Source: Iocasia fonsfrigidae
GTDB taxonomy: Bacteria; Bacillota; Halanaerobiia; Halanaerobiales; DTU029
DNA length: 64,000 bases
Assembly: GCF_017751145.1 (NCBI RefSeq)
Contig: NZ_CP046640.1
Coordinates: 2,832,137-2,896,136 of the forward strand
Direction of reading: 5' to 3'
In this document: in pieces, positions 7,040-59,435 of the stretch
How the letters are laid out: every line of letters begins with the position of its first letter
How positions within the stretch are numbered: position 1 is the first letter of the stretch
Notes under the pieces: generated by a model
What the model saw: only the letters and a program-made list of their open reading frames with translations
What the model was told of the DNA's origin: nothing
The model's database searches: none
Program-made: the position numbers and the translations under genes

Positions 7040-7071
7040 ATAGTTTATTCCTTTCTGAATTAAACTCAAAG

Positions 7072-7341
7072 TTAACTACTTATCATAAATCAAAATCAAT
7101 ATATTTACTGGACGACTCTAGAAATTGTCTGGAGGCATGGAACTTGGCCTCGATGGCCTGATACTGAACCGTCCTTGCGTAATAAAAAGAGGGTTCAGTG
7201 AGCCGAAGGAGAATTTCTCGATAGTAAGCGAAGGTAGGACACCGCAGCGCAACCTCAATTTTCTTGTACGGTCTACTTAAATGCGGAGTGCCTGCGGTAC
7301 ACGACCAGAGAAACAAATATATCTGTCGATCTCTAAAGTTG
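7072..7341. repeat. Structured intergenic repeat, copy B (largest)
   Basis: This non-coding insert lies between the binding-protein and ATPase genes of one ABC operon. Its left 110 bp matches copy C (14870-14990) closely. It can fold into hairpin GAGGC/GCCTC (7132-7136, 7147-7151) and hairpin ACTGAACC/GGTTCAGT (7163-7170, 7192-7199). A further module, GGT-AGGAC-ACC (7233-7243), resembles modules in copy A. The loop TTGCGTAATAAAAAGA and the strand GTGAGCCGAA are nearly the same in C. A 77-codon open frame across it is accidental, because it follows the repeat and not a protein family. Confidence 0.75.
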
Positions 7342-7343
7342 TA

Positions 7344-8387
7344 TTATTCCAATTCTAAATACTTTTCAATATATAAAGGATTAACATATTCATTGAACTC
7401 TTCCTGTGTAGGTGAATAATCGATAAATTTTTGTTTCTTAAGAAAATCAGCAGTATTTTTCATCACGACTGCAAAAGCCCCAGGCTCTTCAGTGCTACCC
7501 AAAAACCCTTCACCAAGTAATTCTTCTGGAGTATACCAACTTGACCCCTGCATCTGTAACAAAGCCTCTTCTGCTGTAATCCCCAGTTCCTCAGCTACAA
7601 TGGTGGCAGCTTTTTCCGGGTTCTGTCTATAAATATCTGCTGCTTCTGTTAAACAGGCAATAACTGCTGTCACTAGCTCTGGATATTTCCGGGCAAAATC
7701 TTTTTTAACCACCTCTACATTGGCTGTTATATATCCTTTCTCAATCATATCCTGGCTTGAAATCAAAACTCTCCCACTTTCCAGTAATTTTCCAAGTGAA
7801 GGCTGCCAGGTATAAGCTGCCTGAATATCCCCTCTTTCCCAGGCCGCAACAATCTCTGTTGTCTGCATGTCTAATAACTGTACTTCACCTTCAATTCCAG
7901 CATCTTTAAGGACATTTAATAAAATAAAATGACAGGTAGAAGCAAAAGGAACTGCAATTCTTTTTCCAGCCAGGTCTTCTATCTTATTAATACCTGAACC
8001 CTCTTTAACTGCCAGGGCTTCAATTTCTCCCAATACTTCATGAATCCAGACCATTTCTACATTAAGCTCTCTGGAGAGAGCAGTAATAGAATTGATATTT
8101 CCCATTGTCGCAAAATCAATACTCCCTGATGCTAAAGCCTTGTTGGCCTCTGACCCTGAATCAAAAACAACAAAATTACACTCAATTCCCTTTTCCGTAA
8201 AATACTTATCAAATAATCCTGCAGCTATAGCTATTGTTTCCTCATTAGGAACCCGAAGAATACCAAAAGTTATTTCTGCAGGTAAATTACCTGAACTTTG
8301 ACTGCCAGAACCATTACCACAGGCTATCAGAGAAACAGCTATAGCCCCTAGCAATATAATTGATAATATCCTTTTACGTAAACTCAT
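7344..8387 (-). CDS. Lipoprotein substrate-binding protein (TauA/SsuA/NMT1-like)
   Basis: A signal peptide with lipobox (SLIACG) is followed by a two-lobe type II binding protein. Conserved family segments include TFGILRVPNEETIAIAAGLF, DFATMGN and a central GKRIAVPFASTCHF. Such proteins deliver sulfonates, taurine, nitrate or thiamine precursors to ABC permeases; the sulfur genes that follow suggest a sulfur compound here, which is inference. ATG 8387 is used because TGGAGG lies 7 nt upstream. It follows the permease gene by about 23 nt, so the two are co-transcribed. Confidence 0.85.
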   Translation of the reverse strand: MSLRKRILSIILLGAIAVSLIACGNGSGSQSSGNLPAEITFGILRVPNEETIAIAAGLFDKYFTEKGIECNFVVFDSGSEANKALASGSIDFATMGNINSITALSRELNVEMVWIHEVLGEIEALAVKEGSGINKIEDLAGKRIAVPFASTCHFILLNVLKDAGIEGEVQLLDMQTTEIVAAWERGDIQAAYTWQPSLGKLLESGRVLISSQDMIEKGYITANVEVVKKDFARKYPELVTAVIACLTEAADIYRQNPEKAATIVAEELGITAEEALLQMQGSSWYTPEELLGEGFLGSTEEPGAFAVVMKNTADFLKKQKFIDYSPTQEEFNEYVNPLYIEKYLELE

Positions 8388-8410
8388 AATCAACCTCCAT
8401 TTTAATCTCC

Positions 8411-9226
8411 TTATACCTCACCTTTCCAGAAGACAATCTTCTTCTCTAAAAACCGTAATCCAGCATTTATCAAGATACCGGTAATACCCATTATCAAGAT
8501 ACCAATAAAAATAATCTCGCTTTTTAAAAAATTTGCTGCATCAAGTACCATCCAGCCTATACCTGAAGTTGCTGCTATCATTTCAGCAGAAACCAGTGTA
8601 GTATAAGCTACCCCAAAGGCTGTCCTAACACCTGTAAAAATCTCAGGTAAACAGGCAGGTAATACTATCTTAAAAAAGACGTTTTTTTGATTTGCCCCCA
8701 GTGACTTAGCACTCAAGATATAATCCCTGTTAATTTTACTTACAGCAGATACACAGGCAATGTAAATAGGGGCAAAGGCTGCCAGAAATAATAGTATTTC
8801 TTTTGACGTATCATCTATTCCAAACCATAAGATAAGCAGTGTATAATAAGCAAGTGGTGGCAAAGGGCGGTAAAATTCAACTACAGAGTCAATCACAGCT
8901 TCAATCTTACTAAAATATCCACTTAAAAGACCCAGTGGAACAGCAGTTATAATAGCAAAGATTAAAGATACCAACAATCTTTTGAAACTTGCTCCCAGGT
9001 GACCCCAGAGAGAAATCCCGTTATAACCATCATTTAAAAGCCCGAGGAAGGCTGTCCAGACTCTGAATGGTGATGGCACCAGGGTTGCAGAAAATACCTC
9101 TAATCTGCTTAGTACATACCAGGCAAGGAAAATCACCAGCCAGGTTGCTACAGTCATCTTTTTTTCAGTTTTACTCTTTTTCTTTTCCGAATTATTTGCT
9201 CCCTGTTTATCCTTTAATAAGTCCAT
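8411..9226 (-). CDS. ABC transporter permease (SsuC/TauC type)
   Basis: This 271-residue integral membrane protein has about six helices and the EAA-loop consensus of binding-protein-dependent permeases (SAKSLGANQKNVFFKIVLPACLPEI), seen here as AKSLGANQK then ILPA-like VLPACLPEIF. A Lys-rich cytoplasmic N-terminus precedes the first helix (WLVIFLAWYVLSRL). It heads the set permease, binding protein, ATPase on the minus strand. The ATG follows a G-rich site (GGGGCGTG). Confidence 0.9.
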   Translation of the reverse strand: MDLLKDKQGANNSEKKKSKTEKKMTVATWLVIFLAWYVLSRLEVFSATLVPSPFRVWTAFLGLLNDGYNGISLWGHLGASFKRLLVSLIFAIITAVPLGLLSGYFSKIEAVIDSVVEFYRPLPPLAYYTLLILWFGIDDTSKEILLFLAAFAPIYIACVSAVSKINRDYILSAKSLGANQKNVFFKIVLPACLPEIFTGVRTAFGVAYTTLVSAEMIAATSGIGWMVLDAANFLKSEIIFIGILIMGITGILINAGLRFLEKKIVFWKGEV

Positions 9227-9361
9227 AACTCACACGCCCCTGTCTAAGCAAACAAATATTAGTAAGGCCACCAAGTATAAACCCGATGGCCGTAATAATA
9301 ATATCACTTTTCTGGAGAAATTTCAAAATATATACCTGAATCTAACATTATCATATTCCTT

Positions 9362-11059
9362 TTAGTTAAAATTATATTCAGTTACGATCTTCTCCCTGCC
9401 TGTAACCTGATCCTGATAAAATTCATAACAACAGATACCCAAAAAGGAACCGGAAATATTACATACATTATCATAACCCATCCCCTGTAAAGCCATTATA
9501 GCATTATAGCTTCTCTGGGCTGAACGGCAGTGTAAGTAGACTGGTTCATCTTCTGGAATTTCACCTGCCCTGTCCCTGAGTTCACTCAGAGGAATATTTA
9601 CAGCATTTTTGAGATGTCCTGCTTTGTACTCATCTTCTTCCCGCACATCTACAATAAAGGCATCATTCTCTACCAGTTCTCTAACTTTAGTGACCGGCAC
9701 CTGTTCGAATTGTCCATGTAAAATATTTAATCCCACTAAGGCAGCCTGATTTACTACATCTCTGGCTGTACTGAATAAAGGGGCATAACATAATTCTAAT
9801 TCTTTTAAATCCTCCAGGGTGCCACCCATACGGATTAATGTTGCAGCAACATCTATTCTCTTAGCCACATCACCTTTTCCAATCGCCTGAGCACCGAGGA
9901 TTTTCCCGCTTGGGTATTCATATATTAACTTAAAGTAGAGTGGATTACTGTCAGGCATTAAACCTACTATATCTGAAGGGATAATATAAACAAAATCATA
10001 GGGAATCCCTGCTTTTCGGGCAGTCTTTTCATTTATACCTGTAGAGGCAGCATTCAGATCAAAGATTTTGACTACAGAAGAACCAATAATCCCTTTATTT
10101 GAATGAGGAATACTGTTAATGTGGTCAGCTGCTGCCCTGGCCTGTCTCTGAGCCGGACCAGCTAGTGGTAGCCTCGTTTTATTTTTAGTTATGGAACAAA
10201 ATACCTCTATAGCATCACCCACTGCATATATATCTTTATCACTTGTACGGTAGTTGTGATCCACCTTAATTCCACCTGTTTCACCTATTTCCAGGCCAGC
10301 CTCTTCTGCTAGTTTAGTTTCAGGACTAACTCCAACTGCCATAACTACTGCTTCAGCCTTAACTCTTTTACTAGACTCTAACTCTATATATTCCTGATCA
10401 ATCTTTTTAACTGCATCATTTAAAATCAGATTAACCCCTTTGTCATATAACTCTTTATGCAGTATTTGAGCCATATCATAATCAAAAGGCGACATAACCT
10501 GGTCCAAGGCTTCTATTAGACTGACATCTTTCCCGGCAAGGTGAAGATTCTCTGCAACCTCTATACCAATAAAACCACCACCTACAACAGCAATATCATT
10601 GATATTATTGTCCTTTATATAATTATTTAGCTTGCTAATATCCTGAACATTTCTAACTGTAAATACATTTTTACTGTCTATTCCCTCAATACTGGCAGGT
10701 AAAATTGGATTAGCACCAGGGGACAAAACTAATTTGTCATATTTTTCTTCATATTCTTCACCAGTTTCCAGGTTTTTAACAACTACTTTTTTCTCATCCC
10801 TCTTTATTTTAGTAACTTCATTCCTTGTCCTTGCCTCAATATTATATCTTTTTTTGAATGTCTCAGGACAGATCAATACCAGGTCTTCACTTTTCTCTAC
10901 AATACCACTTAAATGAAAGGGAAGTGCACAATTAGAAAAAGAAACATTGTGGCCCCGTTCAAACATAATTACCTCTGCAGACTCATCAAGCCTTCTTGCC
11001 CTTGCTGCAACCGAAGCACCTCCAGCTACACCACCGACAACTAATATCCTATTTGCCAT
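9362..11059 (-). CDS. CoA-disulfide reductase/persulfide reductase with C-terminal rhodanese domain
   Basis: The N-terminal two thirds is a pyridine-nucleotide disulfide oxidoreductase of the CoADR class. It has an FAD motif (VVGGVAGGASVAARARR), the active-site Cys in SFSNCALPF (C44), an NAD(P) motif (VVGGGFIGIEVAENL) and YAVGDAIEV. The C-terminal about 100 residues form a rhodanese domain with active loop HCRSAQRS. CoADR-rhodanese fusions reduce CoA persulfides or polysulfide with NAD(P)H, or transfer persulfide sulfur. Full length (565 residues) is as expected. It sits amid sulfur transport and sulfurtransferase genes. Confidence 0.9.
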   Translation of the reverse strand: MANRILVVGGVAGGASVAARARRLDESAEVIMFERGHNVSFSNCALPFHLSGIVEKSEDLVLICPETFKKRYNIEARTRNEVTKIKRDEKKVVVKNLETGEEYEEKYDKLVLSPGANPILPASIEGIDSKNVFTVRNVQDISKLNNYIKDNNINDIAVVGGGFIGIEVAENLHLAGKDVSLIEALDQVMSPFDYDMAQILHKELYDKGVNLILNDAVKKIDQEYIELESSKRVKAEAVVMAVGVSPETKLAEEAGLEIGETGGIKVDHNYRTSDKDIYAVGDAIEVFCSITKNKTRLPLAGPAQRQARAAADHINSIPHSNKGIIGSSVVKIFDLNAASTGINEKTARKAGIPYDFVYIIPSDIVGLMPDSNPLYFKLIYEYPSGKILGAQAIGKGDVAKRIDVAATLIRMGGTLEDLKELELCYAPLFSTARDVVNQAALVGLNILHGQFEQVPVTKVRELVENDAFIVDVREEDEYKAGHLKNAVNIPLSELRDRAGEIPEDEPVYLHCRSAQRSYNAIMALQGMGYDNVCNISGSFLGICCYEFYQDQVTGREKIVTEYNFN

Positions 11060-11169
11060 TATAAAGTACCTCCTAATTATTATTTTCGGTCTGTTTAGTT
11101 GATTTATTTATAACTCAATATTTTTCTATATAAGTTACATTCAATTTATTCACACTAATACTTTGTGTA

Positions 11170-11296
11170 AGCCAATTATATTAATGGAGCGACTCTATAT
11201 TTTTCACGTAGGCAGGACGCCGGAGTGAAAAATATGTGACAGTGAGTGAAGGCAAGACGCCGTAACGAACGACAAGCGGAATTAATATAATTGGCT
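11170..11296. repeat. Structured intergenic repeat, copy A
   Basis: Outer 16-bp perfect inverted repeat AGCCAATTATATTAAT (11170-11185) / ATTAATATAATTGGCT (11281-11296). An inner 11-bp stem ATATTTTTCAC (11197-11207) / GTGAAAAATAT (11225-11235) encloses GGC-AGGAC-GCC. A second motif, GGC-AAGAC-GCC, occurs at 11251-11261. It lies between the CoADR gene and the YeeE gene and has no coding frame. Confidence 0.75.
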
Positions 11297-11346
11297 GGAA
11301 CGCAAAAGTGTTATATTTAAGTGCTACTTATATAGTTTATTTATAA

Positions 11347-12654
11347 TTACATACTAATTTCACTACCCTGCTTTTTAAGATTGCCACTACTGGTCAGTGG
11401 AGGGCTAAAAAAGATCCTATTACTAATAATCCCACCGACAATCATAAAAACTAAAAACACCCAACCTGATAGAGAGAAGTTAGCAATTGGGGTATATAAT
11501 GCACCAACATTACACCCATTGGCAAAACGGGTCCCTAATCCCATAGTAATACCACCTAAGGCATATAAAAGTATTTCCTTTTTACTTATCTTAAGTTCTG
11601 AGGTAAAAATAGCTTTAAACTTACCAGCAGTCAAGAGATAAATAACTGCCCCCACAATAATCCCAAAGTTTTGTACTGAAACTTCATGTTGGAAAAAGGG
11701 TAATTTGAAAACATCTGCTGACATTTTAGTAAAATCAGCAAGAGATTCAGCTGAAATACCCAAAAACATTAATACCTTGCCCAGCCAGATACCATAAGGG
11801 GTAGACGCCCCCCATCCGGCCCTGGTAACCCCCATTAAGAGGGTAAATATAATACTCATTACTACTGCCCCCTGTTTTAATGTCCAGGGTTTAGCAAAAA
11901 TATGTTCATAAGTTTCGGCACTAAAGGGTTTGAAATTTTTCAGTTCTAATTCCGTTATCTGTTCCTGCTGTATTTCCATCCCATGACCAAGATATTTATC
12001 ATTTTCTTTAAGTTTTTTCTCATAATAATAGGAAACAAATATTACTACAGCACAAAATAGAGCCAGTAAGATAAGTGACCCCAGATAACCGCCTAAACCA
12101 TCCCATTGAAAGAGATCAGGCAGAAAAACACCTTCATTTATTCTCACTCCTGTAGGGGTAATAAACCAGGAATTTCTAACCCAGCTGGCAGTCCTCTGTA
12201 CAGGAAAACCGAGAAACACACCTAAACAGAAAAAAAGCAGGGTAATAAAAGCCCTGGGAAATCCTGCCGATAGGTCAGTAAGCACCCCGGAGGCACAACA
12301 AACAGAAATTGACATTCCAAAACCAAATAAAAATCCACCTAAAATTAGTCCCATATTGATAGGGTTTATCCAGAGATTATAATTAACAGGATCTGATTTA
12401 AATAAAAATGCGCTTGTTATTAAAGCAGTAATAAAAAACATAAACATCATAGTTCTCATTAATTTAGTTGACCCAGTCCTATAGGCCCGGTTAACACTCC
12501 CAGCAAACCCTGTATAAGCCCTTGCCAGGGCGTAACCTAATCCTACACCTATTAAAAGTCTGAAAAATAAAAGGTCAGTTTTTAAGAAACCTTTACCCAG
12601 GACTAACACTAATAATATAACTATAAAACCTAAAATATTCTCTGTCTTCTTCAT
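11347..12654 (-). CDS. YeeE/YedE (TsuA-like) thiosulfate/sulfur-compound transporter
   Basis: This 435-residue protein has about ten or more hydrophobic helices and two internally related halves, each with a conserved Cys motif: GFGMSISVCCASGVL in the first and GLGTRFANGCNVGAL in the second. These are hallmarks of the YeeE/YedE family, whose characterised member TsuA imports thiosulfate through a relay of cysteines. No TusA-like soluble domain is fused. A short hydrophilic linker (residues about 215-250) joins the halves. The neighbouring rhodanese genes make sulfur uptake the best reading. Confidence 0.88.
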   Translation of the reverse strand: MKKTENILGFIVILLVLVLGKGFLKTDLLFFRLLIGVGLGYALARAYTGFAGSVNRAYRTGSTKLMRTMMFMFFITALITSAFLFKSDPVNYNLWINPINMGLILGGFLFGFGMSISVCCASGVLTDLSAGFPRAFITLLFFCLGVFLGFPVQRTASWVRNSWFITPTGVRINEGVFLPDLFQWDGLGGYLGSLILLALFCAVVIFVSYYYEKKLKENDKYLGHGMEIQQEQITELELKNFKPFSAETYEHIFAKPWTLKQGAVVMSIIFTLLMGVTRAGWGASTPYGIWLGKVLMFLGISAESLADFTKMSADVFKLPFFQHEVSVQNFGIIVGAVIYLLTAGKFKAIFTSELKISKKEILLYALGGITMGLGTRFANGCNVGALYTPIANFSLSGWVFLVFMIVGGIISNRIFFSPPLTSSGNLKKQGSEISM

Positions 12655-12728
12655 TACAATTCCTCCCTTGATACTTTACCATAATTTGTACTTTAATTCT
12701 CAAAAGAGTGTACCAAAATAGAGGGAGA

Positions 12729-12764
12729 AGTTTCCCTTTTTAAACCTATGTTCAAAGGGAAACT
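12729..12764 (-). terminator. Terminator after the double-rhodanese gene
   Basis: Perfect 11-bp stem AGTTTCCCTTT / AAAGGGAAACT with a 14-nt loop, starting 14 nt past the stop of the exported rhodanese gene. A T/C-rich tract follows on the minus strand. Confidence 0.6.
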
Positions 12765-12777
12765 CCTTGTTATCAAT

Positions 12778-13683
12778 TTATTTTACAATTTCATAGCCCT
12801 TATTTGACCACCCATAGGGTTTATTTGCTGCTGTACCCATACCACCATTGAGAGATACTGCATCATAACCTAACATCCTCAAACCTGCCACTGTCTGGCC
12901 TGCTGTCTGACCTGTATAACAGTAGACTACAATTTTCTTGTCTGCGGGTAATTGACCAAAATACTCCTGCATTCCTTTACCCCAGGGAATATTTATAGCT
13001 CCAGGAATATGTCCTTTACTATAAGCTGATGATTGTCTTATAGAAAGAATAATAATGTCCTGTTCAGCATCAATTGTCATCTTGAGTAAATCTTCACTAA
13101 TTTTGTAATTCTTAAACATCGTACCATCAACATCAGCTAAACCTTGGTAATAGTCAACAACAGCGTCTTTAATCTCAGGAGCTATTTTGTATGGGCTTGT
13201 ACCTTCAAGTTCATTGTTTTTTGTCTCGACAACTGCTTCATAACCAGCTACCCTGCTAATTCCCAGATTCCAGCCAAACCTAACTGACTTAGCCTCAAAA
13301 CCGGCAAAGTTTAATAAAGCTACAGTCTGATTAGCAGTCTGCGCTGTATAGCAATAGACATAAATAGTTTCATCAGCAGGCAGCTTATCAAGATTTTCTG
13401 GAATAGCATCTGGACCCCAGGGCAGATTAATCGCTCCCTTGATATGTCCTTCATTATAAACATCAGCCTGTCTTATATCAAGAATAAAGAGCTTTTCACC
13501 TGATTTGACCTTTTCAATAAAACTGTCCTCAGCTATCATGCTATTGTCTTCAGGTAGATTGGCAAAATAACTATTAACTGCCTCTTCAACCTTCTCTGAT
13601 ACAGCCAGAACAGAACCTGTACCAACTATACCGGTTACTAATACCAATGCCATCATTATTGAAAATATCATTTTTCTTCTCAT
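12778..13683 (-). CDS. Exported double-rhodanese sulfurtransferase
   Basis: A signal peptide (MRRKMIFSIMMALVLVTG..) leads to two rhodanese domains, each with DIRQ/SIRQ, a GHIKGAINLPWG or GHIPGAINIPWG segment and an active-site loop containing CYTAQTANQ (domain 1) or CYTGQTAGQ (domain 2). Both domains keep the catalytic Cys, which is uncommon because many tandem rhodaneses retain only one. The start is ATG 13683 because AGGAGG precedes it by 7 nt; an ATG two codons earlier is too close to that site. It likely handles sulfane sulfur outside the cytoplasmic membrane. Confidence 0.85.
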   Translation of the reverse strand: MRRKMIFSIMMALVLVTGIVGTGSVLAVSEKVEEAVNSYFANLPEDNSMIAEDSFIEKVKSGEKLFILDIRQADVYNEGHIKGAINLPWGPDAIPENLDKLPADETIYVYCYTAQTANQTVALLNFAGFEAKSVRFGWNLGISRVAGYEAVVETKNNELEGTSPYKIAPEIKDAVVDYYQGLADVDGTMFKNYKISEDLLKMTIDAEQDIIILSIRQSSAYSKGHIPGAINIPWGKGMQEYFGQLPADKKIVVYCYTGQTAGQTVAGLRMLGYDAVSLNGGMGTAANKPYGWSNKGYEIVK

Positions 13684-13736
13684 TATCATTCCTCCTGAAA
13701 TATATTTTAGATTTTTTTACGTATTGTATAAGACTT

Positions 13737-14648
13737 TTAAGACCCATCCTGAAAATTAGTTTTAATCCCTGTACCATCAGGTATTTCAACTGGCAGAGAA
13801 GTATCTGAAGACCATTCAATCCAGGCTCCATCATATATCTTCAAATCCCTATAACCAGCATTATATAGTGCAAGGTATGTCTGAGCAGCCCTGATAGAGG
13901 TTTTGCAATACATAATGACCGTCTTCTCAGGTGTTATTTCTTTGTCTCTATATAAAGTATGAATCTGTCTTACAGGTCTAAATGTACCATCATCAAAATT
14001 ATTATACTCATAATTCAAATGAACTGAAGCAGGAATTGTCCCTGCATTATATTCTTCCTGGGTTCGGACATCCAGTAATACTACATCATCCTGTGGATTA
14101 TTAACCTCAGCTTTGACATCTTCCCTGCTGGCCAACATCTCTTCATTTTTTTCTGTTATTTCATATTTTACTGCTGACATATCAGCCATAAGAGTAGATT
14201 TCTCTGCTCCAGCTTTAAGAAGTGCTTTAAGTCCACCACTTACTACTTTAACATCTTCATGGCCATAAACTTTCATCGTCCACCATAATCTGGCTGCATC
14301 CATATTGTTATTATTGTCATAAACAATTACTGTGGAATCATTTGCTATACCCTTTTCACCCAATACTTTTTCTATTTTTTCTGCTGGCGCCAGCATGTTA
14401 GGGAATGGGCCAAAAGTAGTAATATCATTCCTGCTGATATTGACTGCACCTTCCACATGACCATCCTTATAAGCACTTGAATTTTGCGCATCTACCAGTA
14501 CAGCCTCTTCTCCTGAGACAGATTTCAGGGTATCTCTGGCACTAATAATCTCCTGCCCCTTTTCTCCCGGGGCCTTTGTACTTGTACAAGCTGTAACTGT
14601 TATAAGTATGATCATGATAAGTAATAAAAGTTTTGATATATTGTTCAC
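13737..14648 (-). CDS. Lipoprotein sulfurtransferase with two rhodanese domains
   Basis: A signal peptide ending in a lipobox (VTACTS) anchors the protein. The first rhodanese domain (VDAQNSSAYKDGHVEGAVNI) has a degenerate active loop: VIVYDNNNNMDAARLW has Asp where the catalytic Cys would sit. The second has the loop MYCKTSIRAAQ with Cys. That resembles SseA/thiosulfate sulfurtransferase organisation. The start is GTG 14648, with GGAGGTGG about 5 nt before it. It precedes the other exported rhodanese gene by about 50 nt on the same strand. Confidence 0.87.
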   Translation of the reverse strand: MNNISKLLLLIMIILITVTACTSTKAPGEKGQEIISARDTLKSVSGEEAVLVDAQNSSAYKDGHVEGAVNISRNDITTFGPFPNMLAPAEKIEKVLGEKGIANDSTVIVYDNNNNMDAARLWWTMKVYGHEDVKVVSGGLKALLKAGAEKSTLMADMSAVKYEITEKNEEMLASREDVKAEVNNPQDDVVLLDVRTQEEYNAGTIPASVHLNYEYNNFDDGTFRPVRQIHTLYRDKEITPEKTVIMYCKTSIRAAQTYLALYNAGYRDLKIYDGAWIEWSSDTSLPVEIPDGTGIKTNFQDGS

Positions 14649-14799
14649 TCTTCCACCTCCAATATTACTTGTCAATTTTATATTGTTAAATTAAGCACAA
14701 TCTCTACTAATATTATAATACAAAAATCCCCTCTGTAGGTATAAGTTTTTATTATAGTGTATTTGATTATCTAATACGGTGGTGATATAAAAATTAACT

Positions 14800-15021
14800 T
14801 ACGGTATCCAAACTTAATCAACAATCATTAGTGTTTTCTTATAACCACTTTTTACTCAAAGTTAATTACTTATCATAAACCAGACCAATATATTTACTGA
14901 ACAACTCTAGAAATTGTCTGGAGGCATGGAACTTGGCCTCGATGGCCTGATACTGACTCAACCATGCGTAATAAAAAGAAGAGTCAGTGAGCCGAAAGAC
15001 AATTAAGTAAATATATTGGTC
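14800..15021. repeat. Structured intergenic repeat, copy C
   Basis: Outer 16-bp inverted repeat GACCAATATATTTACT (14883-14898) / AGTAAATATATTGGTC (15006-15021), continued inward by AATTGTCT / AGACAATT. Inside are GAGGC/GCCTC and ACTGACTC/GAGTCAGT (14952-14959, 14981-14988). Compared with copy B, the last stem differs at two positions on each side and keeps pairing. The left flank from 14800 matches copy F at 58262. A 66-codon open frame here is accidental. Confidence 0.75.
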
Positions 15022-15077
15022 AGTCTCTAAAATTATCCACAATTCAAACACCACATAATTACTCACTATTAGTATGT

Positions 15078-15187
15078 GTTCGAAAAGATATAAATAGGGG
15101 ATTATATATCCCTGAACGAAGTTAAGGTGTTACCATTGAGTGAAGGGATATATAATCCCTGTCGATATATACTAATACTTTTCGAAC
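15078..15187. repeat. Structured intergenic repeat, copy D
   Basis: Outer arms GTTCGAAAAG (15078-15087) and CTTTTCGAAC (15178-15187). The inner 17-bp arms AGGGATTATATATCCCT (15097-15113) and its reverse complement (15144-15160) are each nearly palindromic. The 30-nt loop contains CGAAG, GGTGTTACC and GAGTGAA, echoing the loop of copy A. It lies next to copy C, upstream of the GT-C gene. Confidence 0.65.
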
Positions 15188-15263
15188 AGACTCTATTAGA
15201 TAATTTATTTACCGAAATAAAATTATGATGATATAATAATATTGATAGATTGGGGGTATTTAG

Positions 15264-24367: not shown

Positions 24368-24424
24368 AATTATACTTATTATTCAATTTTTAAAATCAAA
24401 TATTTTACATCTCAATCATATCAA

Positions 24425-24469
24425 TGGAGCCGGTGATGGGACTCGAACCCGCAACCTGCTGATTACGAT
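24425..24469 (-). pseudogene. tRNA-Thr 3'-half remnant (distal attachment-site scar)
   Basis: On the minus strand the segment from the anticodon loop (CGT) through the T arm and acceptor strand to CCA is present. The D arm and 5' acceptor strand are missing. It matches the intact tRNA-Thr at 36384-36459 in the anticodon 3' stem and acceptor strand but differs in the T stem, so it is not a simple copy. The geometry is that expected for integration at a tRNA 3' end. No integrase is visible. Confidence 0.75.
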
Positions 24470-36383: not shown

Positions 36384-36459
36384 TGGAGCCGGCAAGGGGA
36401 CTTGAACCCCTAGCCTGCTGATTACGATTCAGCTGCTCTACCAATTGAGCTACACCGGC
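36384..36459 (-). tRNA. tRNA-Thr (anticodon CGT)
   Basis: A complete 76-nt cloverleaf on the minus strand. The acceptor stem GCCGGTG pairs with TGCCGGC. The anticodon stem GCTGA/TCAGC carries loop ATCGTAA. The T arm is GGGGTTCAAGTCCCC and CCA is encoded. Its 3' end is the apparent integration target of the adjoining island. Confidence 0.95.
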
Positions 36460-58250: not shown

Positions 58251-58261
58251 GAACAAAACTA

Positions 58262-58462: not shown

Positions 58463-58532
58463 TTTAATAAAAGTTAATTGATTAGACAATATCTTTACCT
58501 GTAAAGAATACTTACATAAGGGGGCAATAATT

Positions 58533-58949
58533 GTGTTTGAATGGAAAGACTCATATTCTGTTGGCATTGAAGAAATTGACAAGCAGCACAAAAATTTATT
58601 AGGTATTGGTGAAGAACTGGTATATGTTATGGAAAATACTACTAAAGGACTTGATCAATATGATGAAATCAAACGTCTGTTGAAAGAACTGTATGATTAT
58701 ACAGTCTACCATTTTACTGCTGAAGAAAAACTAATGAAAAAATATGATTTTATTGACCTTCCCAGTCATCAATTCCAACATAAACTATTTGTCAAGAAAA
58801 TTGAGGAAATCGATCTAGACGAATTTGATAATGATCAAATAGACTCAACTTTTAAAATCATGGAATTTCTTTCTAATTGGATTACTAATCACATTTTAAA
58901 AATAGATCCTCAGTACAGTAAAGTCTTAAGAGAAAAAGGTGTACGATAA
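58533..58949 (+). CDS. Bacteriohemerythrin, copy 1
   Basis: A 138-residue diiron O2-binding protein. The ligand set is visible: H19 in DKQHKNLL, then YHFTAEEKLM, SHQFQHKLF and a late NHILKID. GTG start, GGGGGC upstream. Likely carries or scavenges O2 or NO in an anaerobe. It is about 83% identical to copy 2, even in the ribosome-site region. Confidence 0.92.
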   Translation: MFEWKDSYSVGIEEIDKQHKNLLGIGEELVYVMENTTKGLDQYDEIKRLLKELYDYTVYHFTAEEKLMKKYDFIDLPSHQFQHKLFVKKIEEIDLDEFDNDQIDSTFKIMEFLSNWITNHILKIDPQYSKVLREKGVR

Positions 58950-59021
58950 CAAATAGCTGCAATTTAAAAAGAGGCTATCTAATTAATTTATTGAAAATAC
59001 TTACATAAGGGGGCAATAATT

Positions 59022-59435
59022 GTGTTTGAGTGGAAAGAAGCTTATTCTGTTGGCATTGAAGAAATTGACAAACAACATAAAAATTTACTAGGTATTGGTG
59101 AAGAACTGGTATATGTTATGGAAAACACTACTAAAGGACTTGATCAATATGATGAAGTCAAACGGCTATTGAAAGAATTATATGACTATACCATCTACCA
59201 CTTTACTAGTGAAGAAAAACTAATGGAAAAACATGATTTTCTGGAACTCCCCAGTCACCAATTCCAACATAAGCTTTTTGTTAAAAAACTTGAAGAAATT
59301 GATCTAGAGGAATTTGATAATGACCAGCTAGAAACAACAAATCAACTCCTGGACTTTATCGCCAACTGGATTACCGAACACATTTTAAAAGAAGACCAAA
59401 AATACAGCAAAATAATCCGAGAAAAAGAAGCATAA
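59022..59435 (+). CDS. Bacteriohemerythrin, copy 2
   Basis: 137 residues with the same ligand layout (H19, YHFTSEEKLM, SHQFQHKLF, EHILKED). It starts with GTG after the identical leader ATACTTACATAAGGGGGCAA. A recent tandem duplication; differences are concentrated in the C-terminal third. It shares the upstream promoter or uses one in the 72-bp gap, which is too short to say. A terminator follows. Confidence 0.92.
   Translation: MFEWKEAYSVGIEEIDKQHKNLLGIGEELVYVMENTTKGLDQYDEVKRLLKELYDYTIYHFTSEEKLMEKHDFLELPSHQFQHKLFVKKLEEIDLEEFDNDQLETTNQLLDFIANWITEHILKEDQKYSKIIREKEA

What the first reader, a model, noticed from the sequence alone, without database searches (positions are those of the whole stretch)
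7072..15021. Covarying hairpin shared by intergenic elements B and C
Copy B has ACTGAACC/GGTTCAGT (7163-7170, 7192-7199); copy C has ACTGACTC/GAGTCAGT (14952-14959, 14981-14988). The two elements are otherwise nearly identical nearby, yet both arms changed together to keep pairing. The GAGGC/GCCTC hairpin and the loop GCGTAATAAAAAG stay constant. Compensatory change is the mark of a selected RNA or DNA structure rather than a passive repeat.
Basis: seen in the sequence. Interest (0 to 1): 0.7.

Follow-up and report, generated by a model that had tools for sequence, protein, structure and literature searches.

The report
Replication-oriented transposons carrying a folded core
The two look-alike stretches are copies of a small jumping-DNA family that cannot move by itself, points almost always the same way relative to chromosome copying, and carries an elaborately folded core that bacteria of several families have kept in shape while its letters changed.

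Summary
The hairpin change is real, but thin evidence alone: of 18 copies of that hairpin in sampled sequence, two have fully compensated arms (B and one other) and one has a broken pair. It is a swappable module of something larger. (1) B and C are non-autonomous IS91-type elements; the family shares both ends with eight near-identical IS91 transposons in the same 3.93-Mb genome. (2) Orientation follows replication: 55 of 57 ori ends; 36 of 36 merged sites if the terminus lies near 2.0 Mb. Target supply does not explain it; gene orientation is only partly excluded; a ter end at 778852 is an exception. (3) Inside lies a ~130-nt three-way fold, X, with no Rfam match, found in 15 of 101 relatives and 17 of 398 phylum genomes. 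On 74 filtered sequences 32 of 39 pairs covary in a home-made R-scape-like test, and unpaired bases are the conserved ones. X also sits in elements with other ends.

The parts
7063..7350 (+). Copy B: decayed non-autonomous IS91-type element, both ends beyond recognition; strand given is ori-to-ter reading
   Evidence: no end assigned, so family membership rests on similarity to intact copies
7090..7327 (+). Fold X of copy B, enlarged by two modules
   Evidence: genome 2839226-2839463, 66.1 bits; one search gives 7089-7331
7163..7199 (+).
7251..7300 (+). 50-nt module M3 inserted on the P3 side of X (limits read by eye)
   Evidence: also in L127 of another genome
14788..15060 (+). Copy C: non-autonomous IS91-type element with decayed ori end and recognisable ter end (TTATCCACAATTC)
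   Evidence: ter end with 6 mismatches
14879..15025 (+). Fold X of copy C, P3 hairpin deleted
   Evidence: genome 2847015-2847161, 44.3 bits
14952..14988 (+).
11126..11335 (+). Third X carrier in the window: element of a second family (T2), ends TATATAAGT/ACTTATATA
11167..11299 (+). Fold X inside the T2 element, stems unrelated in sequence to those of B and C
   Evidence: 116.8 bits
58248..58384 (+). IS91-type copy with the ori end (GAAC at 58251), cut off inside X; between two head-on genes yet oriented by the replichore

Best explanation
B and C are old copies of a non-autonomous IS91-type (HUH, two-tyrosine) transposon family, moved in trans by the IS91 transposase that the same chromosome encodes eight times. 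The transposase is expected to nick next to GAAC at the ori end, displace one strand up to the ter end and insert it next to another GAAC (inferred from IS91). Insertion is coupled to the replication fork, so copies keep one orientation per replichore (orientation shown; coupling inferred). I think X most likely works as folded single-stranded or cruciform DNA that helps small transposons to survive or complete movement (inferred, about 0.4; RNA alternative about 0.3).
For: Shared ends with eight autonomous copies; transposase is IS91 family by NCBIfam NF033538, 286 bits against cut-off 125, with HIH and YIGRY motifs; GAAC exactly at 35 of 57 ori ends. Orientation: 42 of 42 matches, 55 of 57 ori ends and 34 of 36 ter ends, 36 of 36 merged ori sites with the terminus set at 2.0 Mb; needed target not commoner on the favoured strand, 1026 against 1211; where gene orientation is mixed or opposite 12 of 13 sites and 5 of 5 (overlapping set) still follow. 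Fold. Independence of X from the mover.
Against: No transposition was observed. 88% of sampled ORFs (355 of 402) run with the fork and 72 of 85 sites lie between two such genes, so selection tied to transcription is hard to exclude. The T2 elements, with other ends, also follow the replichore (12 of 13 matches; exception 1014654, a weak match), as does X in G039 (10 of 10 over), which suggests a cause not special to IS91. Element 778672 has IS91 ends against the rule. A DNA role for X in an IS91 single-strand phase does not explain X in elements with inverted and direct repeats, nor its inverted position in some IS91-type copies.
Confidence: 0.7

Rival explanations
1. X is a structured RNA: it is transcribed within untranslated regions or intergenic stretches and acts on transcript decay or processing, or in trans.
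For: Fixed unpaired bases and paired G/A-rich caps of both hairpins look RNA-like; in P1 and P2 interiors G.T mismatches (44) exceed A.C (15) on the modelled strand; about half of bcr repeats of B. cereus are transcribed (PMC3446304, passages).
Against: Wobble is rare (44 of 2565 interior cells); X is antisense to most flanking genes here, mixed in G048 and G324, and of the opposite sign in G039; no Rfam match.
Confidence: 0.3
2. X is itself a mobile or recombining cassette (a parasite of small transposons), which explains its presence in elements with unrelated ends.
For: X in IS91-type, T2, G039 and G324 elements; inverted X copies next to forward ones about 12 nt apart (3239519/3239662, 1710333/1710476, 3440483/3440629); X-less elements with the P1 palindrome alone (L005, L024).
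Against: The X-less forms can be deletions between self-palindromic arms, and L214 keeps a footprint of the junction; arms outside this family are not self-palindromic, so they are no target duplication.
Confidence: 0.15
3. Neutral arm homogenisation: template switching between inverted repeats keeps the arms complementary without selection.
For: The process is described (PMC8604942, abstract in the listing); one-sided changes are rare beside two-sided ones.
Against: It does not explain why unpaired junction and loop bases are the conserved ones, nor retention of X in elements with different ends.
Confidence: 0.1
4. The strand bias follows gene orientation or transcription, not replication.
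For: 355 of 402 sampled ORFs are co-directional with the fork and 72 of 85 sites lie between two such genes; T2 elements show the same bias.
Against: 12 of 13 sites with mixed or head-on genes follow the replichore (5 of 5 in the ori-end set).
Confidence: 0.25

Closest known systems
IS91 / IS801 rolling-circle insertion sequences and their truncated derivatives
   Same: Y2 transposase, two unlike ends, GAAC at the ori end, short derivatives moved in trans (PMC3189936, passages; PMC5714925, passages)
   Different: Here a distinct non-coding family with both ends and a folded core, in 36 or more merged sites of one chromosome, and with fixed orientation per replichore; IS801 derivatives in that paper are truncations of the IS itself
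IS200/IS605 elements and PATEs (palindrome-associated elements)
   Same: Small non-autonomous elements; orientation that mirrors replication is known for IS608 and ISDra2 (PMC5371812, passages)
   Different: Other transposase class; only one Y1_Tnp over the cut-off here; inferred strand polarity is opposite; IS605 in Halanaerobium hydrogeniformans showed no strand preference, 10 of 22 (PMC7290912, passages)
MITEs
   Same: Short, intergenic, multi-copy, foldable
   Different: IS91-type copies lack terminal inverted repeats; the G039 element that also carries X does have inverted ends and direct repeats at several sites
bcr1-bcr18 repeats of the Bacillus cereus group
   Same: Structured, MITE-like, many intergenic copies (PMC6542083 and PMC3446304, passages)
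   Different: Reported as restricted to that group, with TTTAT motifs; I had no bcr sequence, so homology with X is untested

Membership tests
IS91 family (autonomous partner) | HUH transposase with two tyrosines (Y2) | tested here: met
   Pfam Y2_Tnp, 8 near-identical copies over the cut-off; NF033538 286 bits; HIH and YIGRY read in the protein
IS91 family (autonomous partner) | unlike ends, no terminal inverted repeats, ori end next to GAAC or a near relative | tested here: met
   ends read; GAAC at 35 of 57 ori ends
IS91 family (autonomous partner) | rolling-circle transposition with a single-stranded intermediate | not testable with these tools
   needs a mobility assay
non-autonomous IS91-type element (intact copies) | both ends shared with an autonomous partner in the same genome | tested here: met
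non-autonomous IS91-type element (copy B) | recognisable ori and ter ends | tested here: not met
   assigns neither end to 2839226; copy B is placed by similarity of its body to intact copies
non-autonomous IS91-type element (copy C) | recognisable ori and ter ends | tested here: inconclusive
   ter end found with 6 mismatches, ori end below threshold; ori-side body 92% like an intact copy
IS200/IS605 PATE | ends shared with a Y1 transposase element | tested here: inconclusive
   one Y1_Tnp over the cut-off; its ends were not compared
MITE in the strict sense | terminal inverted repeats and target duplication | tested here: not met
   for the IS91-type copies: unlike ends
any Rfam family | match at or above the gathering score | tested here: not met
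   (window, one own locus, ten further loci)
bcr1 repeats | sequence and fold of bcr1 | not tested
   no bcr1 sequence at hand; the defining paper is not held

The most novel reading that the evidence does not exclude
X is an undescribed class of selected nucleic-acid fold that small transposons of unrelated mobility classes (IS91-type here, inverted-repeat elements elsewhere) carry as a common structural passenger across several families of Bacillota, extended by exchangeable hairpin modules; and IS91-type transposition is replication-coupled with a polarity opposite to that of IS608.
Probability: 0.4. Interest if true: 0.78.

Novelty: new variant of a known kind. Interest (0 to 1): 0.62.

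Why it matters
If X is a selected fold shared by transposons that move by different chemistry, something general about small transposons, or about how hosts deal with them, depends on a three-way junction; that is directly testable. The one-way layout of an IS91-type family makes it possible to ask whether rolling-circle transposition uses the replication fork, a point established for IS200/IS605 but not mentioned for IS91 in what I read.

Tried and rejected
IS200/IS605 as the mover: only one Y1_Tnp over the cut-off, and the IS91 ends fit. Orientation as a property of X itself: not supported, since 7 own copies have X against the rule while the IS91 ends, where the scan could assign them (5 of these 7), obey it; at 3440483 and 3909135 it assigned none and I read the flanks by eye. 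Element 778672 does the reverse. G048 and G324 have X on both strands in both halves. Target-site skew: rejected. X tied to IS91: rejected. Viruses, phages, plasmids: no match to two patterns in viral contigs, to C in plasmids or to B in phages. A priming-site idea for X (PriA-type AAGCGG, recalled): the hexamer is in 29 of 74 filtered sequences and lacking in the commonest own type; left as a lead. DDE transposases as an orientation control: only 4 copies, one plus and three minus, all in the left half; none of PF00872; too few to say anything.

Steps that led nowhere: (alignment of wrong fragments), the first pattern scan of genome contigs (no hit), (spent on a protein that told nothing; pattern too loose, mostly chance; redone; this report in a wrong form). 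Literature: 10 searches. 'IS91 family', 'lagging strand', 'orientation' and 'replication fork' together gave no paper. I make no wider claim about what is in print.

Limits of the counts: one search scored 40 of 101 candidates, 40 of 118, 150 of 2003; copy numbers are lower bounds. Searches used stricter filters. For one search the 112 matches (111 distinct) became 105 rows after dropping short ones and 74 after dropping rows at 95% identity or more; alignment A4 was fitted to the structure, which favours it, and the test is my own script, not R-scape. Gene calls are plain ORFs of at least 90 aa or 100 aa.
Full report
Observation. Two base pairs differ on both sides. In the parts of the chromosome that I sampled there are 18 copies of this hairpin: 11 with C's arms, 3 with a G.T closing pair, 1 with a broken pair, 1 with B's arms, 1 with B's 3' arm and a 5' arm split by another module, and 1 with an independent compensated change. 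The loop is not constant.

What B and C are. A search of the window's own genome (3,926,493 bases, one contig) with C finds 42 matches (40 of 101 candidates scored). The same genome holds eight near-identical transposons with those two kinds of ends around a transposase with an open frame of 465-470 aa that is an IS91-family transposase by NCBIfam (286 bits, cut-off 125) and Pfam Y2_Tnp, with HIH and YIGRY. The two ends are unlike each other, and GAAC stands exactly at 35 of 57 ori ends, as reported for IS801 (PMC3189936, passages). Chains such as copy-copy-IS-IS at 493-497 kb are joined at GAAC. The family is therefore IS91-type and non-autonomous. B has no recognisable ends and C only the ter end, so their membership rests on similarity to intact copies.

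Orientation. In one search, 42 of 42 matches are on the minus strand below 2.10 Mb and on the plus strand above. Scanning all sampled sequence for the two ends on both strands gives 57 ori ends, 55 following the rule, and 36 ter ends, 34 following it. The exceptions are ter 778852, and ori 2080461, ori 2082059 and ter 2082178 at one place. GC skew is positive up to 1.95 Mb and mostly negative from 2.08 Mb; with the terminus set at 2.0 Mb all 36 merged ori sites follow, but then the X copy at 2097109 does not. GTTC is not commoner on the strand that would be needed (1026 against 1211). Gene orientation is a serious confounder: 355 of 402 sampled ORFs run with the fork, and 72 of 85 X sites lie between two such genes. 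Of the 13 other sites 12 follow the replichore by X strand, and 5 of 5 in the overlapping ori-end set. I read this as replication-coupled insertion, at about 0.7. If, as in IS91, the strand that begins at ori is the transferred one (model in PMC5714925, passages; strand assignment is my inference), it lies on the strand opposite to the lagging-strand template, unlike IS608 (PMC5371812, passages).

The fold. The copies share a core, X, of about 130 nt: outer stem P1, a conserved CGACTCT, stem P2 capped by GGAGNCA-GGANGNCGGA, then ACAG, hairpin P3 with a like cap, then ACGNCAAG and the other arm of P1. In 19 own copies 18 of 39 pairs show changes on both sides. The model from these finds 95 matches in the genome (150 of 2003 candidates scored), 87 of them following the strand rule by X strand, and it finds 15 of 101 relatives, the window's own genome included; a model from 51 copies finds 17 of 398 genomes of the phylum, own included. 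Stem arms in distant ones are unrelated in sequence. On 51 matches, 48 distinct, 93.1% of 1756 cells pair, against 63.5% after shuffling and 36-47% when slid, and all 39 pairs have double changes. My own R-scape-like test (APC-corrected G statistic, FastTree, parsimony, 30 null alignments with substitutions re-placed along the tree; 74 sequences) gives 32 of 39 stem pairs at E<0.05 within the structure and 25 of 39 against all column pairs; the 28 strongest of all pairs are stem pairs. Unpaired columns inside the fold (47) are more conserved than paired ones (78): entropy 0.65 against 1.27, p 1e-9. No Rfam family matches (the weak hits stay far below their gathering scores).

Modules. X is thus a platform that grows at its tips.

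X is not a part of IS91. It lies in a second own family, T2, of about 207 nt with ends TATATAAGT/ACTTATATA; in an element of G039 of 228-240 nt with inverted ends and, at several of the 8 sites read, flanking direct repeats; and in an element of G324 of 189-191 nt with inverted ends. Of the 15 X-positive genomes, 6 have a Y2 transposase. In 8 own IS91-type copies X is inverted relative to the ends (ends by eye in two). X strand in G048 (30 listed matches) is mixed along the chromosome; in G039 it follows the two halves in 10 of 10 places over, with the opposite sign to the window's genome. T2 follows the replichore in 12 of 13 matches.

How it may work. Shown: shared ends, transposase, orientation, fold, modules. 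Inferred: mobilisation in trans, coupling to the fork, role of X. Between RNA and DNA the data do not decide. Interiors of P1 and P2 hold 2440 Watson-Crick, 44 G.T, 15 A.C and 66 other cells: little wobble, as expected for DNA, but more G.T than A.C, as expected for RNA of the modelled strand; rows are not independent. X is antisense to most flanking genes here and on either strand elsewhere, which argues against a fixed cis role in mRNA. I lean to a DNA role at about 0.4. Template switching can homogenise arms without selection (PMC8604942, abstract) but does not explain fixed unpaired bases.

Known kinds. IS91 and IS801 derivatives, IS605 PATEs, MITEs and the B. cereus bcr repeats are nearest (see the comparison fields). 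A 2024 review of prokaryotic MITEs contains neither 'IS91' nor 'replication' in a term search (PMC10969869). Within ten searches of an open-licence library I found no description of X or of replichore-oriented IS91 elements; that is a limited search.

Noticed in passing
window 15077-15190: A different hairpin repeat (TGTTCGAAAAG...CTTTTCGAACA, about 115 nt) lies next to copy C; four copies were seen in sampled sequence: 675784, 779733, 2847233, 3665718.
   Followed up: partly
L035 and other intact ter ends: The ter end contains TTATCCACA, which equals a consensus DnaA box (recalled); it may be chance or may matter in a replication-linked element.
   Followed up: no
L204, L206, L208, L210, L211 (genome G039): The X-bearing element of G039 is flanked by direct repeats that in L208 and L211 are whole terminator-like palindromes, as if it inserted into terminators; this could by itself give a gene-linked orientation.
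   Followed up: partly
window 58507-59295: Two neighbouring genes of hemerythrin-like look (recalled) are 89% identical over 300 nt, a recent tandem duplication.
   Followed up: no
window 24418-24469: A 52-nt stretch is 83% identical to part of the tRNA-Thr gene at 36384-36459 but is not called as a tRNA; perhaps an integration remnant.
   Followed up: no
L193, L195, L184, L189 (genome G048) and own 3239519/3239662: X copies often lie in inverted pairs close together.
   Followed up: no
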